The position numbers and the translations under genes are program-made. Below are positions 7,347 through 50,137 of a DNA stretch of 50,476 nucleotides, piece by piece. The DNA lies in NCBI GenBank assembly GCA_014382665.1, contig JACNJH010000128.1, forward strand, positions 1 through 50,476, read 5' to 3'. The notes under the pieces are model-generated. The model worked only from the letters and a program-made list of their open reading frames with translations, ran no database searches and had not been told where the DNA came from. Position 1 is the first letter of the stretch; each line of letters starts with the position of its first letter. Source of the DNA: Candidatus Desulfatibia profunda. GTDB lineage: Bacteria; Desulfobacterota; Desulfobacteria; Desulfobacterales; UBA11574.

Positions 7347-8360
7347 TTATTTATTTTCTGCCACACATATTGCCTGTTCTGCGGCCATTGTTATTGCTGC
7401 GATGAGGCTGCCGGGATCCGCGATGCCGCTTCCGGCAATATCATAGGCCGTGCCGTGGTCAACCGAAGTTCTGATGATGGGAAGCCCCAGCGTGGTATTG
7501 ACGCCGTCGGTAAAATGAATCAACTTAAAGGGAATCAACCCCTGGTCGTGATACATGCATACCACTGCGTCGTAAAGGCCTTTTGCCGCGTGATAAAACA
7601 GGGTGTCCGGTGGAAACGGACCGGTAACGTTAAACCCTTCGTTACGGGCCTGAATGACGGCCGGATCAATGATCTTTTTTTCCTCGTCACCGAAAAGGCC
7701 CCCTTCACCTGCATGGGGATTCAATCCGGCCACGGCGATGCGGGGATCTTTACACCCAAAGCGGTCAGACAACGCACGTCCGGTAATTCTTATGGTTTGA
7801 ACGATGCGATCTTTTGAAAGCATCGCCGGAACGCGTTTTAAGGGAATATGTATCGTTACGAGAACGACCCGGAGTCGACTGCCGGCAAGCATCATGGCAA
7901 AAAGATCGCACTTGGTCCGTTCCGCCAGCAGTTCGGTATGGCCACTGTAGCGAAAGCCGGCGATTTGCATGGCCATCTTGTTAATGGGGCAGGTTGTAAT
8001 TGCGGCAATACGAGCTTCGGTGGCCATATCGATTGCAGTCGTTACATAACGTACCATGGCCCTGCTGCTCTCAACGGTTGGCCGGCCCCATAATGTTTTT
8101 TCGGGGTCAAGTTCAGAAAGGTTCAGAACGTCAATTGAGCCACAATTATAGCGCCCGCCGGCGGGGTCCTCGACGGTATTAAGATGAAGCCGGCTTCCGG
8201 TAGATGTTTGGGCAGCGTTCAATATGCGGATATCGCCCAGCACCAAGGGTCGGCAGATGCTATAAATTGAAGGGTGGCTGAGTGCCAAAAGGATAATTTC
8301 CGGGCCGACCCCAACAGGGTCTCCCATGGTAATTCCTATCAACGGTCGAAAATTCGACAT
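7347..8360 (-). CDS. pdxA: 4-hydroxythreonine-4-phosphate dehydrogenase
   Basis: NAD-dependent oxidation of 4-phosphohydroxy-L-threonine in pyridoxal 5'-phosphate synthesis (DXP-dependent route). The 337-aa protein opens with GITMGDPVGVGPEI and carries the metal-binding histidine blocks GHTELLAERT, NPHAGEGGLFGDEE and MYHDQGLIPFK. Length is normal. It lies upstream of uvrA and divergent from dnaA, with a 559-bp AT-rich noncoding region between the two starts. Confidence 0.95.
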   Translation of the reverse strand: MSNFRPLIGITMGDPVGVGPEIILLALSHPSIYSICRPLVLGDIRILNAAQTSTGSRLHLNTVEDPAGGRYNCGSIDVLNLSELDPEKTLWGRPTVESSRAMVRYVTTAIDMATEARIAAITTCPINKMAMQIAGFRYSGHTELLAERTKCDLFAMMLAGSRLRVVLVTIHIPLKRVPAMLSKDRIVQTIRITGRALSDRFGCKDPRIAVAGLNPHAGEGGLFGDEEKKIIDPAVIQARNEGFNVTGPFPPDTLFYHAAKGLYDAVVCMYHDQGLIPFKLIHFTDGVNTTLGLPIIRTSVDHGTAYDIAGSGIADPGSLIAAITMAAEQAICVAENK

Positions 8361-8919
8361 AAGCGCTATAAAATCAATAGTTAAACGGTTAAATTAAAAA
8401 GCCAAATGATTCGATGAAAAGAAATGCTGGCAAAAAAAATATTATACTACAGGTCATAATTTTTTTTTTCAAACAAATTTCTTAAGTTGGTAATCTATTT
8501 TTGGCGCCGGCAGATTGAATATGAAAATAAGAGATAATTAAAGATAAAAAGAGTTTTTCGGAATAAACGTGATTGTAAACATTATGATCATATTGATGGA
8601 TATGCCTAAAATGCTTCAAAAAAAACCTTTGTTCAAAAATGATTGTGTTTAAAAGGAGTTGTCTTTTGGTTGATTGTTAAAAATAATTAAATCAGTAAGA
8701 TAAAGATTGTTAATAACTTATTTAAAACTAGAAGAAAAATCGGATTTATCAGGTTTGACACCAAAGGGCGGATCTCTTAAATTAGGCCCAATCTTTCAGT
8801 GATTTTTCGAATAATCTGAAATAATACTCCGATAACGTTTAAATTCGTAGCTTTTTAGATATTTCCCTCTGAGATAGCAATTAATTATTTTCTGTTTCAA
8901 TTTAAGAGCCTATAGTTCT
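8361..8919. other. AT-rich noncoding region between pdxA and dnaA with four GATTGT direct repeats (possible origin or dnaA control region)
   Basis: The 559 bp contain no credible gene and are strongly AT-rich. GATTGT occurs at 8571, 8641, 8672 and 8705, always on the + strand, in about 140 bp. No E. coli-type TTATCCACA box was seen. The dnaA promoter candidate lies at 8755-8783. Such a region upstream of dnaA could be an origin or an autoregulatory site; neither is proven. Confidence 0.4.
8755..8783 (+). promoter_or_regulatory. Candidate sigma70 promoter of dnaA
   Basis: TTGACA (8755-8760) and TAAATT (8778-8783) are spaced by 17 bp and would leave a leader of about 130 nt before the dnaA ATG. 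The GATTGT repeats end about 45 bp upstream of the -35 box. Confidence 0.5.
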
Positions 8920-10278
8920 ATGAAATCGATCTGGAAAGAGGTAAAAGCTGCCATTGGGTTGCGTGTTCCCCGTCACAGTTTCAGAATGTGGATTGAACCG
9001 CTGGAACTTGAAAAATGCCAACAGGACCATATCGTAATTTCTTGCCCCAACCTTTTTTTCAGGAAAAGGGTTTTAGAAAATTATGGCAAACTGATAGAAG
9101 CTGAAATACATCGAGTGGCCGGTACGGCCTGCGGTTATTCTATTGAGGTTTCCAGAGAAAATGAGGTTTCCAGAGAAAAGAATGTTTCAAGATCGACAAC
9201 AGATATCAATTTGCAACTGCCGCTTCCCAACGTGGGTGTTCGTCCCCATAACGGACGTCTTTTAAGAAAAGATTTTACTTTCGATCAGTTTGTGGTCGGA
9301 AGTAACAATGACTTTGCTTACTCAGCATCGCTTTCACTGGCTTCGCGTAAGGATACTCAGCAAAATTCTTTATTATTATTGTCAAATACCGGCATGGGAA
9401 AAAGCCATCTTTCCCAGGCCGTCGGCCATTATATCTTGTCTGAGCACCCTTCGGATCGTGTCTATTATATGACGGCTGAAGACTTCAGCAATGAAATGGT
9501 TCAAGCTTTTCGACATGATGCCATTAATGCGTTCAAGACAAAATACAGAAACGGCTGTGACGTCTTGCTGCTTGAAGATGTTCACTACTTGAGCGGCAAA
9601 GAACGAACTCAGATTGAACTGGCTTTTACTCTGGATACACTGTTTGAGAGCGGCAAAAAAATGATTTTTTCAAGTTGTTACTTGCCGGCCGATATTCCGA
9701 AACTTAATGATAACCTGCGGTCGCGTCTTTCAAGCAGCCTTATTTCAAATATTGATCCGCCGAACTTCAGGACAAGAGTCAGGATATTACAGAAAAAAGC
9801 GTTGCATAACGGCTATAAAATACCCGAAGACGTCATGCATTATTTGGCCAGCGAACTCACGGAGGATGTTCGGCAGCTGGAAAGCGGGCTTATTGGCGTT
9901 GCCGCCAAATCGTCACTTTTGGGAGTACCCATCGATCTTGCCCTTGCAGAAAGTGTCGTTAAGAATATCGTTCGTCAAAGAAAAAAAATAACCATGGATG
10001 TCATCAAGAAGCTGGTATGCAAATACTACAATCTTTCCATGGAAGACATTGTTTCCAATTCCCGCAAGCAATCCATTGTTCGGCCAAGGCAGATAGCGAT
10101 TTACCTGTCGCGCATGTATACGGATTCACCCCTTCAGACCATCGGGAAAAGCTTTAACCGCTACCATGCCACAGCGCTTCATTCCATCGGCACGGTTGAA
10201 CGGGCGGTTAAGGCAGACGGTGCCGTGCAGAAGCAGGTGGAATTTTTACGCCGGAAACTCGAATCTGGAACATATTGA
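8920..10278 (+). CDS. dnaA: DnaA-type replication initiator with divergent DNA-binding signature
   Basis: The four DnaA domains are present in 452 aa: domain I (1-75) with conserved hydrophobic W residues, a short linker (76-115), the AAA+ domain (about 117-350) and domain IV (353-452). Walker A is SNTGMGKS (155-162), Walker B DVLLLED (214-220; the second-last acid is E rather than the usual D). The arginine-finger segment LRSRL (266-270) and sensor II VRQLE (317-321) are kept. The signature usually written FGGRDHTTVLHA is FNRYHATALHS here: one residue is missing, and the D and first T that contact DnaA boxes are Y and A. The linker contains a tandem duplication (EVSREN/EVSREK). Either the sole, diverged initiator or a paralogue. 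Confidence 0.86.
   Translation: MKSIWKEVKAAIGLRVPRHSFRMWIEPLELEKCQQDHIVISCPNLFFRKRVLENYGKLIEAEIHRVAGTACGYSIEVSRENEVSREKNVSRSTTDINLQLPLPNVGVRPHNGRLLRKDFTFDQFVVGSNNDFAYSASLSLASRKDTQQNSLLLLSNTGMGKSHLSQAVGHYILSEHPSDRVYYMTAEDFSNEMVQAFRHDAINAFKTKYRNGCDVLLLEDVHYLSGKERTQIELAFTLDTLFESGKKMIFSSCYLPADIPKLNDNLRSRLSSSLISNIDPPNFRTRVRILQKKALHNGYKIPEDVMHYLASELTEDVRQLESGLIGVAAKSSLLGVPIDLALAESVVKNIVRQRKKITMDVIKKLVCKYYNLSMEDIVSNSRKQSIVRPRQIAIYLSRMYTDSPLQTIGKSFNRYHATALHSIGTVERAVKADGAVQKQVEFLRRKLESGTY
9145..9180 (+). repeat. 18-bp tandem duplication inside dnaA linker
   Basis: Two adjacent 18-bp units beginning GAGGTTTCCAGAGAAAA encode EVSREN and EVSREK, and a degenerate third unit follows. It lies in the unconserved domain II linker, where length change should be tolerated. 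Confidence 0.8.
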
Positions 10279-46819: not shown

Positions 46820-47020
46820 ATGGCGAATGGGATTGTGAAATGGTTTAGCGATAAAAAGGGCTATGGTTTTATTGAGCAAGAAGATGGGCCGGATATATTC
46901 GTTCATCATTCAGGGATCGGGGGGGCAGGTTTCAAGTCTCTTCATGAGGGCGATCGGGTTACCTTTGACATAGAGGATGGTCAAAAAGGTCCGGCAGCAG
47001 TAAATGTCACCGTAGTTTAG
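46820..47020 (+). CDS. Cold-shock protein, CspA family
   Basis: 66-aa single OB-fold RNA chaperone. [18 protein letters not shown] gives RNP1 (KGYGFI), and DIFVHHSGI gives RNP2 (VFVHH type). The start at 46820 has an excellent AAGGAGG ribosome binding site; an upstream in-frame ATG at 46787 lies before it and is not needed. The 5' leader (46640-46819) is long, as often in csp genes. A terminator follows. Confidence 0.95.
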
Positions 47021-47041
47021 CCAACAGTTTTTTTAAACAAC

Positions 47042-47080
47042 AAAGGGCATTCCATCAATTATAAGGGGATGCCCTTTTTA
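47042..47080. terminator. Rho-independent terminator between csp and the Cys-rich gene
   Basis: AAAGGGCAT (47042-47050) pairs with ATGCCCTTT (47069-47077) with an 18-nt loop, followed by TTTTTA on the + strand. The stem ends on the stop codon (47078-47080) of the minus-strand Cys-rich gene, so it may serve both sides. Confidence 0.7.
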
Positions 47081-47518
47081 TTTCTCTGAAGATTTCCGGC
47101 AATCGCTTTTTTTGGGCCCAAGACACACGCTACACCTGTCGTCACTGCACAACTGGCAGACATAGCCCGGATATTTCACGCCCCTGAGGTGTTCATTTGC
47201 AAGGCATTTAAGGACGCAGCCGTAATGTTCTACTGCAAGTCCTTAATAACGCAGCAAATGGGCACCTCAGGGAGCGCCTGGAAGGTGAAATCTTTTCAGC
47301 TTTTGAGTATTTCCGACTGGGGTACAGTTTGTCACCTTCGATTTTTGACCATTTTTCATCCAAAGCATATGGAATCATTTATTTTTTAGTTATCGATGGA
47401 AAGATTTCATGAAATATTCGGGATAGCAATCCTTGCACGGATGCTTTTTGAGACTTCCCTGCTGTTTTTCAGGGATATAAACTTTTCCCTCTAATCCGGG
47501 TACCCGAACAAACAACAT
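47078..47518 (-). pseudogene. Small Cys-rich protein gene interrupted by a MITE-like element
   Basis: Reading the minus strand from ATG (47516-47518, GGAG eight bases upstream) gives MLFVRVPGLEGKVYIPEKQQ...KHPCKDC, then enters the insert and stops at 47390. After the insert (47165-47423) the frame resumes and ends at TAA 47078-47080. Removing the insert and one TA restores a 59-aa protein continuing HPCKDCYVCQLCSDDRCSVC, with cysteines at 28, 31, 34, 37, 42, 45 and 53 (CxxCxxCxxCx4CxxC). A zinc or iron-sulfur site is likely by pattern; I know no function. Confidence 0.8.
47165..47423. mobile_element. MITE-like element, 259 bp, TA-flanked, terminal inverted repeats
   Basis: Starts GCCCGGATATTTCACG (47165-47180) and ends with the near reverse complement CATGAAATATTCGGGA (47408-47423); 13 of 16 positions match. 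TA precedes (47163-47164) and follows (47424-47425), as a target duplication. Inside lies a long hairpin (47182-47272, with CCCTGAGGTG and CACCTCAGGG arms) and a further inverted pair GAAGGTGA/TCACCTTC (47281-47338). No transposase gene is present, so it is non-autonomous. Confidence 0.8.
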
Positions 47519-47630
47519 GATTGAACTCCGCTGGCAGTTGAAATGCAACGCGGTCGAAGATTACTAATCGCCGTTTGGAGCGCAGCGAAACACCGGTCTG
47601 GTGAACTGATAGGTGTGTGAAGTTTTTGAT

Positions 47631-47960
47631 TTATTGGCTTAGTTTGGAACTGGCAATCCGATTGAGGCTCACACCGGATTCAGCGGCTTGAACAGCGAGT
47701 TTTCGATGAACATCCGGCGGCACCCGAACCATAAACTTGCCACTATAAGACCTGCAAGCAATAGGTTCCGGAACTGTTTCCCCGGATGCATCCATGTCCT
47801 TTACAACGTCAGCAACCAATTTTCGGATACCTTTCAGAGCAGCTTCCGGGGTAAGAGCCAGCCAACTTAAGCTCGGAAACTCCGCACACAAACCTACATA
47901 TTCATTATCATCTTCAGACCAGGTTACACGGTATGTATATCGATCATTTTTTAGCGCCAC
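47631..47960 (-). CDS. hicB: Type II toxin-antitoxin antitoxin, HicB family
   Basis: 110 aa (from GTG 47960). The N-terminal half is a partial RNase H-like fold (RYTYRVTWSEDDNEYVGLCAEFPSLSW, LTPEAALKGI) and the C-terminal half a ribbon-helix-helix (VRVPPDVHRKLAVQAAESG, VSLNRIA). It binds HicA and represses the operon. A GGAGG lies seven bases before the GTG; an upstream TTG at 47981 would lengthen it. It overlaps the end of hicA. Confidence 0.85.
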   Translation of the reverse strand: MALKNDRYTYRVTWSEDDNEYVGLCAEFPSLSWLALTPEAALKGIRKLVADVVKDMDASGETVPEPIACRSYSGKFMVRVPPDVHRKLAVQAAESGVSLNRIASSKLSQ

Positions 47961-48204
47961 GGCTGACCTCCAACTTCTCAAGAGCCAAAAGCACCTGTTT
48001 TACTTGGTATGCCTTGGCCCTTCCTTTATGATTTTGGATATTGATTCTTTGATCACCTTGCCAGGGGGTTCTGTAAATTCGATGGCTGCTTGCACTTTTA
48101 CGAGGTTCCCCAAAGAAATTTTCACAAACTTTGCATAAATCTGTGAATCTGACATCGTTGGGGTTTCGCTTCATTTGTGTCAATATGTCATCGATTTTTG
48201 CCAT
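47944..48204 (-). CDS. hicA: Type II toxin HicA family mRNA interferase
   Basis: 86 aa. The block VRFTDLCKVCENFFGEP then SSHRIYRTPW contains the catalytic histidine region of HicA (here SSHR rather than GSHR), followed by QGDQRINIQNHKGRAKAYQVKQVL. HicA cleaves mRNA during stress and is neutralised by HicB. It is the first gene of the pair, and 17 bases overlap with hicB when the GTG start is used. The start is at or near the transcription start. Confidence 0.85.
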   Translation of the reverse strand: MAKIDDILTQMKRNPNDVRFTDLCKVCENFFGEPRKSASSHRIYRTPWQGDQRINIQNHKGRAKAYQVKQVLLALEKLEVSRGAKK

Positions 48205-48210
48205 GGCTAT

Positions 48211-48238
48211 ATAGTATCAATATTGATATCGTTGTCAA
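48211..48238 (-). promoter_or_regulatory. hicAB promoter with palindromic operator
   Basis: On the minus strand TTGACA (48233-48238) and TACTAT (48211-48216) are 16 bp apart. The spacer holds a perfect 14-bp palindrome, TATCAATATTGATA (48215-48228), a likely HicB operator. The -10 box ends seven bases before the hicA ATG, so the mRNA would be leaderless or nearly so. Confidence 0.6.
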
Positions 48239-48797
48239 GTGCAGATCGCATCATTATTAGATGATCGTGCCCATTGTTTATTACACGCAACTATAGTTAT
48301 GTGCCCTAAAAATATGGACAAACGCGTACATTTATAGACGTATAAGACGCACCAAATAGATTTGAATTCCCTGCGTTATTCTTATTTAAACGCTCCCCTC
48401 TTTTTTTGATGAATCGTTATGCCCTCCGCCCTAAAACCAGTAACAAGCAACCAGCCCTGTCGCGCCGTGTTCCCGCGCCGTAACATTGAGAAGGCGGGAG
48501 CCCGGCGAAGGCGGAAACATGTAACCAGTTTCTCCGATCACTGTTTACCCCGTTAAATTCCGCAGGCCATTTAACTGGGGCCTACTGTCTGCTGCTTATT
48601 GCTCTCTGCTCTGTGCTCCCTGCTCTCTGCTCTGTGCTCCCTGCTCTCTGCTCTGTGCTCCCTGCTCTCTGCTTACTGTCCCTTCCCCTCCCCGTTAACT
48701 ACTAAGAATTTTATAATTTGAGGGGCGTTCCGGAAGTTCCCATTTGTCATTTTGTTAGCATTTAATTAGAAGTCTTATCAGTAGAGTAGAACTTCAG
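48239..48797. other. Noncoding, repeat-bearing region between hicAB and the group II intron
   Basis: No credible gene. It contains a GC-rich stretch around 48440-48540 and the 21-bp tandem repeat at 48601-48675. The AAATTATAATTTGAGGGGCG tract at about 48705-48725 resembles the start of the TTGAGGGGTCGGGGAGTT tags only partly. Confidence 0.4.
48601..48675. repeat. Tandem repeat, 21-bp unit, 3.5 copies
   Basis: Three identical units GCTCTCTGCTCTGTGCTCCCT at 48601-48663 followed by a partial fourth (to about 48675). Pyrimidine-rich on this strand. Not a CRISPR: there are no spacers. No coding sense. Confidence 0.9.
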
Positions 48798-48897
48798 TGC
48801 AGTATTTTTAGGTAAGGGAAGTAGCTGTTTCCGGCGGCTTTCGCCCTATGCCGGTGCCTTAGTCCTTACCAAGATACATTCCCTTAGTCCCCTCGTC

Positions 48898-48930
48898 GAA
48901 CCGTACGTCGGGTTTTCCCCGGTACGGCTC
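48898..48930 (-). ncRNA. Group II intron domain V
   Basis: On the minus strand GAGCCGTAC...GTACGGTTC form the basal stem, with the catalytic AGC at the start, an AC bulge on the 3' side and a CGGG/CCCG upper stem. The terminal loop is GAAAA, one base longer than the usual GAAA. It lies 55 bp beyond the maturase stop, as expected. Confidence 0.85.
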
Positions 48931-48985
48931 TCCGACGACCTTCCCCATGGGCTTATCAGTAACCGTTGTCGTTGATGTACAGCGA

Positions 48986-50137
48986 TTAAACGAACTGGTA
49001 CAATCCCAATCGTACAGGTAGATTGCCGTGGACTCTCCGTGTGCCCCTCGATTGATCGCTATACTTCCGCTTCAGGAAAATTCGTAGCCGCTCGCGAATA
49101 AAACCGTTGAGCCCGCGGATGCGTTTGCGGGCTGCTTTTGCTTGCCTGTGATAGTTATCCCACCCTCTTAGCACTGGATTTAGCTCTGCTATCAGATCTT
49201 CCGGCGATAAACTGAATCGCCGCCCTATCACTTCTCTAACCCGCTCTTTTATCCGCTTTATCGAGCGGTCCGAGGGCCAGATGGCACAGTACTGCTTGGT
49301 CTTTGCATTCTTTGTCGGTACCGGACACAAACGAAAATGCACACCAAGAAAGTCAAATCCCTTTTCCGCTTTAACTACTCGCGTTTTGCCCGGGTGCAGC
49401 TTCAATCCCAGCCGACCCAGCATCTGTGACACTTGCTCGATGACCTTCTTCCCGTTCCGCCAAAGCAAAATAACAAAATCATCGCAGTACCTTACCAACG
49501 TTCCTGGAATTGCCGACTGTTGGAACATCTTGTCAAACGAGTGCAGGTAGATATTACTCAGCAACGGTGATATCACACCGCCTTGCGGGGTTCCCAAACC
49601 GTTTGGCGCGATATGTTTGCCCTCTTCCATGACGCCAGCCTCAAGCCACATGCGGATTAGCTTTAAAACACGGCGATCCGATATGCGGCGTGCGACCAGC
49701 TCCAGAAGAATATCCTGCCGAATATTATCGAAAAAACCGGTTATGTCGGCGTCTATCACAACATGCCGACCTTTAAACGTAATCGTCCGGTCTATGATGC
49801 GAATCGCATCATGGGCGCTACGGCCAACTCGAAATCCATGAGAACATTCAAGGAAATTGGTCTCAAATATCGGCTCGATTACCAACTTCGTTGCCGCTTG
49901 CACCACGCGGTCTCTTATGACCAGAATCCCTAAAGGCCTTTTATCAGGTTTGCCCGGCTTGTCGATATAGCGCCGCAATACCGGTCGCGGGCTGTATCGC
50001 TCGCTTTTCATTTGCTCACGCACCTCGACCAGAAATTGCTCTACACCAATAACGTCCTCGATGTATTCAAAATCCTGCTTGTCAACGCCAGGCGCCCCTT
50101 TGTTGGCCCGCACCCGTTCCCAAGACTCGGCAATCAC
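48986..50137 (-). CDS. ltrA: Group II intron reverse transcriptase/maturase (main fragment)
   Basis: Intron-encoded protein that splices and reverse-transcribes its intron. RT motifs are intact over 383 aa: NKGAPGVD, DADITGFFDNI, GTPQGGVISPLLSNIYLH, YCDD active site at 217-220 (more often YADD), and the maturase X domain LNPVLRGWDNYHR at about 319-331. No HNH endonuclease follows. The real N-terminus is missing: in frame upstream sense continues only after deleting a 17-bp palindrome, so this GTG start is probably an artefact of a broken gene. Confidence 0.85.
   Translation of the reverse strand: MIAESWERVRANKGAPGVDKQDFEYIEDVIGVEQFLVEVREQMKSERYSPRPVLRRYIDKPGKPDKRPLGILVIRDRVVQAATKLVIEPIFETNFLECSHGFRVGRSAHDAIRIIDRTITFKGRHVVIDADITGFFDNIRQDILLELVARRISDRRVLKLIRMWLEAGVMEEGKHIAPNGLGTPQGGVISPLLSNIYLHSFDKMFQQSAIPGTLVRYCDDFVILLWRNGKKVIEQVSQMLGRLGLKLHPGKTRVVKAEKGFDFLGVHFRLCPVPTKNAKTKQYCAIWPSDRSIKRIKERVREVIGRRFSLSPEDLIAELNPVLRGWDNYHRQAKAARKRIRGLNGFIRERLRIFLKRKYSDQSRGTRRVHGNLPVRLGLYQFV

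What the first reader, a model, noticed from the sequence alone, without database searches (positions are those of the whole stretch)
8361..8919. Four GATTGT direct repeats in the AT-rich region before dnaA
GATTGT at 8571, 8641, 8672 and 8705, all in the same orientation in 140 bp; in random sequence about 0.03 would be expected per strand. No TTATCCACA boxes are present. Together with the unusual DNA-binding signature of the adjacent DnaA, they are candidates for altered DnaA boxes or a regulator site, and the region for an origin.
Basis: partly seen in the sequence, partly recalled or inferred. Interest (0 to 1): 0.6.

Follow-up and report, generated by a model that had tools for sequence, protein, structure and literature searches.

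The report
dnaA promoter with variant DnaA boxes
The repeats in front of the replication-starter gene dnaA are mostly fragments of a binding site for the DnaA protein in the gene's own promoter, with one letter changed from the textbook site throughout this bacterial order, and the chromosome probably starts copying elsewhere, next to dnaN.

Summary
The four GATTGT copies are real and exceed chance, but GATTGT is not the functional unit. Across 84 Desulfobacterales loci the conserved unit is TTGTTNATAAC, a DnaA box TTATNAACA (C6 to A of TTATNCACA). It is found 66 times against 1.1 expected, on one strand, often in 11-bp head-to-tail pairs, and 45 bp upstream of a conserved dnaA promoter. In the window only the 8705 copy is a full box. 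The 8571 copy sits in a degenerated tandem array, the 8641 copy in a conserved block that is not box-like, and the 8672 copy is not conserved. A matrix built only from boxes upstream of dnaN ranks the 8705 box first in the whole 50-kb window. The same boxes, in an 85% A+T stretch, precede dnaN-gyrB on another contig of this genome. GC skew turns at dnaN in three relatives; two others are uninformative. Best reading: an autoregulatory dnaA promoter, with oriC at dnaN. DnaA's changed helix (RYHAT for RDHTT) is order-wide, not peculiar to this genome. TTATCAACA-type boxes are already described elsewhere, so this is a lineage variant of a known kind. DnaA binding itself is untested.

The parts
8361..8919 (.). 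AT-rich (72-75%) intergenic region between divergent pdxA and dnaA; dnaA regulatory region
8573..8605 (+). degenerate head-to-tail array of three 11-mers (TTGTAAACATT ATGATCATATT GATGGATATGC); holds the 8571 GATTGT. In relatives the same columns read e.g. CTGTTGATAAC TGTGGATATGC or TTGTTCATAAC TTGTCAATAAC
   Evidence: alignment A1; 11-bp offset preference; weak PWM score in the window itself
8598..8616 (+). conserved element GGATATGCCTAAAATGCTT (consensus GGATATGCTTAAAATGCTT), unknown function; only exact copy in this genome
   Evidence: (59 of 84 loci)
8641..8661 (+). conserved block GATTGTGTTTAAAAGGAGTTG (consensus GATTGTATTTAAAAGCAGTTG) containing the second GATTGT; fits the DnaA-box matrix poorly
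   Evidence: 39 of 84 loci
8672..8683 (+). GATTGTTAAAAA, third GATTGT; one mismatch to the box core but not conserved in relatives
8707..8717 (+). full variant DnaA box TTGTTAATAAC (9-mer 8708-8716 = TTATTAACA on the other strand); fourth GATTGT begins at 8705
   Evidence: best of all positions in the 50-kb window with a matrix built from dnaN-upstream boxes (18.8 against 13.7 bits for the next); conserved
8718..8728 (+). degenerate second 11-mer TTATTTAAAAC; in the near relative L034 it is TTGTTTATAAC
8755..8783 (+). conserved dnaA promoter TTGACA-17-TAAATT
8444..8472 (-). possible divergent pdxA promoter (TTGAAA-17-TAGTAT over the conserved ATTATACTACAG); weak consensus match
8920..10278 (+). 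dnaA, the only full-length DnaA gene of this 98%-complete genome
10159..10173 (+). DnaA codons 414-418 RYHAT, aligned with E. coli/B. subtilis RDHTT at the start of the recognition helix; one residue shorter (FN-R for FGGR)

Best explanation
The region is the promoter and control region of dnaA, not the chromosomal origin. DnaA protein probably binds a full box at 8707-8717 and a weaker, decayed tandem array at 8573-8605. Both lie on one strand at fixed distances upstream of a sigma-70-type promoter (TTGACA-17-TAAATT, 8755-8783), and binding there adjusts dnaA transcription. The box of this lineage is TTATNAACA rather than TTATNCACA. The same box occurs in an 85% A+T region upstream of dnaN-gyrB on another contig, which is the likely oriC. 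Shown here: motif, conservation, spacing, promoter match, and the GC-skew turn at dnaN in three relatives. Inferred: that DnaA binds these sites, and that binding mainly represses.
For: TTGTTNATAA: 66 forward and 5 reverse copies upstream of dnaA in 84 loci, against about 1 expected each. Box 45-46 bp before the promoter match in 31 of 57 loci with the promoter. Second box-like 9-mer at +/-11 bp far above other offsets (40 and 20, against a mean of 3). The same 9-mer upstream of dnaN: 13 forward and 27 reverse, against about 1 each, with no TGTGGATAA. A matrix from those dnaN sites puts the 8708 box first in the window. Own genome: boxes at C144 7688, 7753 and 7812 just before dnaN-gyrB, 85% A+T. 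Skew turns at dnaN in G010 (two-arc fit R2 0.73), in G066 (origin fit 520-580 kb, dnaN 587 kb, dnaA 768 kb) and locally in G115. No skew sign change at dnaA in the window. DnaA represses its own gene in E. coli and binds its dnaA promoter in several other bacteria (PMC8203912).
Against: No binding data. Only one intact box remains in the window. G010, whose skew is the clearest, lacks the box upstream of dnaN, and its skew turn is resolved only to tens of kb. Skew in G049 and G117 is noisy, and the weak G049 fit falls nearer dnaA than dnaN. This genome is in 293 contigs, so its own skew cannot be drawn.
Confidence: 0.7

Rival explanations
1. The region is oriC: DnaA opens the AT-rich DNA upstream of dnaA.
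For: DnaA-box-like sites, the most AT-rich 300 bp of the window and a dnaA neighbour; the noisy G049 skew fit lies close to dnaA.
Against: Skew turns at dnaN in G010, G066 and G115, with dnaA 0.18-1.3 Mb away; no sign change at dnaA in the window; dnaN upstream is richer in intact boxes and in A+T.
Confidence: 0.1
2. GATTGT is the half-site of another transcription regulator of dnaA, and DnaA is not the main binder of those copies.
For: The 8641 copy lies in a conserved block that does not fit the box matrix, and an unexplained element GGATATGCTTAAAATGCTT lies beside it.
Against: GATTGT itself is only modestly enriched in relatives (35 against 14), while TTGTTNATAA is enriched about 60-fold; the 8672 copy is not conserved; the 8571 and 8705 copies align to box positions.
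Confidence: 0.15
3. The four copies are chance in AT-rich DNA.
For: Two of four copies are not box-like or not conserved.
Against: None of 3000 shuffles reaches four copies; two copies sit on conserved positions of box arrays.
Confidence: 0.05

Closest known systems
DnaA box, R type (TTATNCACA) and autoregulated dnaA promoters, as in E. coli (PMC8203912)
   Same: 9-mer DnaA sites upstream of or within the dnaA promoter, next to a sigma-70-type promoter
   Different: position 6 is A rather than C; here the box lies about 45 bp before the -35 element
Double DnaA box with a 2-3 bp gap (E. coli ChIP-seq, PMC11317965)
   Same: 9-mers head to tail with a 2-bp gap (11-bp period) in relatives
   Different: in this window the second member of each pair has decayed; binding is untested
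Mollicute/phytoplasma box TT(T/A)TCAACA (PMC3322544) and the Cyanothece linear-chromosome box TTATCAACA (PMC4674748)
   Same: A at position 6
   Different: other phyla; here it is the dominant form at two loci of a whole order
oriC next to the start of dnaN, as described for most cyanobacteria (PMC4674748)
   Same: boxes just upstream of dnaN
   Different: here dnaN is followed by gyrB and preceded by a divergent uvrD-like helicase gene, and dnaA lies far away in the single-contig assemblies examined

Membership tests
DnaA box | 9-mer within about two mismatches of TTATCCACA | tested here: met
   8708-8716 reads TTATTAACA, two mismatches; consensus TTATNAACA
DnaA box | same motif at another DnaA-controlled locus (oriC candidate) | tested here: met
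   40 copies against about 2 expected upstream of dnaN
DnaA box, R type | 3' part NCACA | tested here: not met
   TGTGNATAA 7 against TGTTNATAA 82 on the forward strand upstream of dnaA; so not R type but a variant
DnaA box | bound by DnaA | not testable with these tools
   needs footprint or ChIP
DnaA-autoregulated promoter | boxes at a fixed place relative to the dnaA promoter | tested here: met
   45-46 bp before the promoter match in 31 of 57 loci
DnaA-autoregulated promoter | DnaA level changes dnaA transcription | not testable with these tools
   needs reporter assay
Chromosomal origin (oriC) at 8361-8919 | GC-skew turn from negative to positive | tested here: not met
   positive on both sides in the window; the turn is at dnaN in G010, G066 and G115; G049 and G117 uninformative
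Chromosomal origin (oriC) at 8361-8919 | cluster of several intact boxes | tested here: not met
   one intact box, against three upstream of dnaN in the same genome
DnaA protein | DnaA_N, AAA+ and Bac_DnaA_C domains above cut-offs | tested here: met

The most novel reading that the evidence does not exclude
In Desulfobacterales the changed DnaA recognition helix (RDHTT to RYHAT with one residue lost) and the changed box (C6 to A) evolved together, so that this order's DnaA prefers TTATNAACA over TTATNCACA: a natural switch of initiator specificity that could be read out residue by residue.
Probability: 0.3. Interest if true: 0.55.

Novelty: new variant of a known kind. Interest (0 to 1): 0.36.

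Why it matters
It gives a working DnaA-box consensus for Desulfobacterales, an order whose genomes here are mostly from uncultured organisms, and moves the origin candidate from dnaA to dnaN. Origin finders that look for TTATCCACA near dnaA may misplace oriC in these genomes. It also pairs an order-wide change in the DnaA recognition helix with a changed box, which can be tested in vitro with domain IV alone.

Tried and rejected
GATTGT as the unit: only 35 against 14 upstream of dnaA in relatives, and the first G is not conserved. dnaA as origin: skew. A strict match between the RYHAT helix and A6 boxes in the phylum: not shown, since families with canonical GGRDHST or KDHST DnaA also carry A6 boxes (L268, L271, L276). 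GGATATGCTTAAAATGCTT as a regulon-wide site: the only exact copy in this genome is at dnaA; the second exact copy in G083 is another dnaA-upstream contig end, and the G088 near-match outside dnaA is inside a coding frame. RNA element: no Rfam match up to E = 1 in 8200-9100. Skew of G117 and G049: too noisy to place an origin. A first version of the upstream table used unoriented loci for minus-strand matches; it was redone with oriented loci. A first script to extract DnaA sequences failed on its search expression and was replaced.

Full report
OBSERVATION. The four GATTGT copies are at the stated places and on the stated strand. They lie between pdxA (divergent) and dnaA; gene names other than dnaA are read from the translations. 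Dinucleotide shuffles of the 559-bp region give 0.16 copies on average; four were never reached in 3000 shuffles, and any G/C-containing 6-mer reaches four in 140 bp in 0.27%. No TTATNCACA box is present.

WHAT IS CONSERVED. I collected dnaA-upstream DNA from Desulfobacterales relatives and compared 84 non-duplicate loci. GATTGT is modestly enriched (35 against 14), but TTGTTNATAA is enriched from 1.1 to 66, almost only on the strand of dnaA. Read on the other strand this is TTATNAACA, a DnaA box whose sixth base is A instead of C. In the alignment of close relatives the 8705 copy lies on such a box (TTGTTAATAAC). The 8571 copy lies on the first 11-mer of a head-to-tail array that is intact in relatives (for example CTGTTGATAAC TGTGGATATGC) and decayed here. 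The 8641 copy lies in a conserved block that is not box-like. The 8672 copy is not conserved. Second box-like 9-mers prefer an offset of 11 bp, the 2-bp-gap double box that E. coli DnaA prefers (PMC11317965). A promoter match TTGACA-17-TAAATT at 8755-8783 is conserved, and the box lies 45-46 bp before the promoter match in 31 of 57 loci.

INDEPENDENT TEST. A matrix built only from boxes upstream of dnaN gave its best score in the whole 50-kb window to the box at 8708 (18.8 bits; next 13.7). Upstream of dnaN the same 9-mer is found 40 times in 30 loci, against about 2 expected, and TGTGGATAA never.

WHERE THE ORIGIN IS. In G010 sampled GC skew gives a clear two-arc picture (R2 0.73) with the turn at 4.44-0 Mb; dnaN is at 4.42 Mb and dnaA at 1.23 Mb. 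In G066 skew turns at 520-580 kb, where three boxes precede dnaN-gyrB at 587 kb; dnaA is at 768 kb (overall fit weak, R2 0.20). In G115 the local skew turns at dnaN. G117 and G049 are too noisy, and the weak G049 fit lies nearer dnaA. G010, G115 and G117 lack the box directly in front of dnaN. In the present genome dnaN-gyrB is on contig C144, preceded by three boxes in an 85% A+T stretch, with skew -0.02 to the left and +0.07 to the right. In the window skew is positive on both sides of dnaA.

THE DnaA PROTEIN. It is an ordinary three-domain DnaA above curated cut-offs and the only full-length one in the genome. Its recognition helix reads RYHAT where E. coli (1j1v) and B. subtilis (8btg) have RDHTT, with one residue fewer before it. 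The same signature, with K for R in one locus, is found in nearly all Desulfobacterales loci examined; L097 has RRHAT. In the other families of the phylum that I read, the Y was not seen, while the shortened FNR form is common. E. coli T435M is defective in box binding (PMC5742627); here the aligned position is A. A strict pairing of helix and box was not shown: some families with canonical helices also carry A6 boxes.

MECHANISM. Shown: conserved variant boxes on one strand at fixed distance from a conserved promoter match, and the same boxes at the origin candidate. Inferred from known biology (DnaA represses its own gene in E. coli and binds its promoter in several other bacteria, PMC8203912): DnaA binds the 8707 box, and more weakly the 8573-8605 array, to adjust its own transcription. 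Titration of DnaA is a possible further role.

COMPARISON. Listed high-affinity 9-mer boxes of model bacteria all keep CACA at the end (PMC4285127). A at position 6 is, however, described for mollicutes, TT(T/A)TCAACA (PMC3322544), and once in Cyanothece (PMC4674748). Searches of the open library for Desulfobacter with oriC, dnaA and dnaN, or Desulfo- with DnaA box and domain IV, returned nothing; most subscription papers are not held, so prior description cannot be excluded.

VERDICT. Observation confirmed; "altered boxes" partly right; "origin" not supported. A lineage variant of a known kind, moderately useful.

Noticed in passing
window 8598-8616: Order-wide conserved element GGATATGCTTAAAATGCTT beside the first box array, in 59 of 84 dnaA-upstream loci and the only exact copy in this genome; no known regulator assigned.
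   Followed up: partly
window about 47000-50000: GC skew changes from positive to negative near 47 kb, the only lasting sign change in the window; gene content not examined.
   Followed up: no
G083 contigs C31 and C52: Two further dnaA-dnaN pairs (DnaA about 29%, DnaN about 36% identical) in a same-family genome; contamination or a second replicon. Another contig end, C116, repeats the dnaA-upstream/pdxA/uvrA region.
   Followed up: partly
L209 (G049 dnaN upstream): The dnaN-upstream region appears twice in tandem, each copy with TGTCAATAA and TTATTAACA, separated by a stretch with GGGTGTTGCAAAG-like ends that resembles an insertion.
   Followed up: no
G010:C1 about 4433450-4433980: AT-rich stretch with a canonical TGTGGATAA box about 12 kb from dnaN; a possible oriC of that family, which lacks boxes directly before dnaN.
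   Followed up: no
L002 and L003 (G000 C84, C33): Two further weak matches to the DnaA ATPase model in this genome, not full-length DnaA.
   Followed up: no
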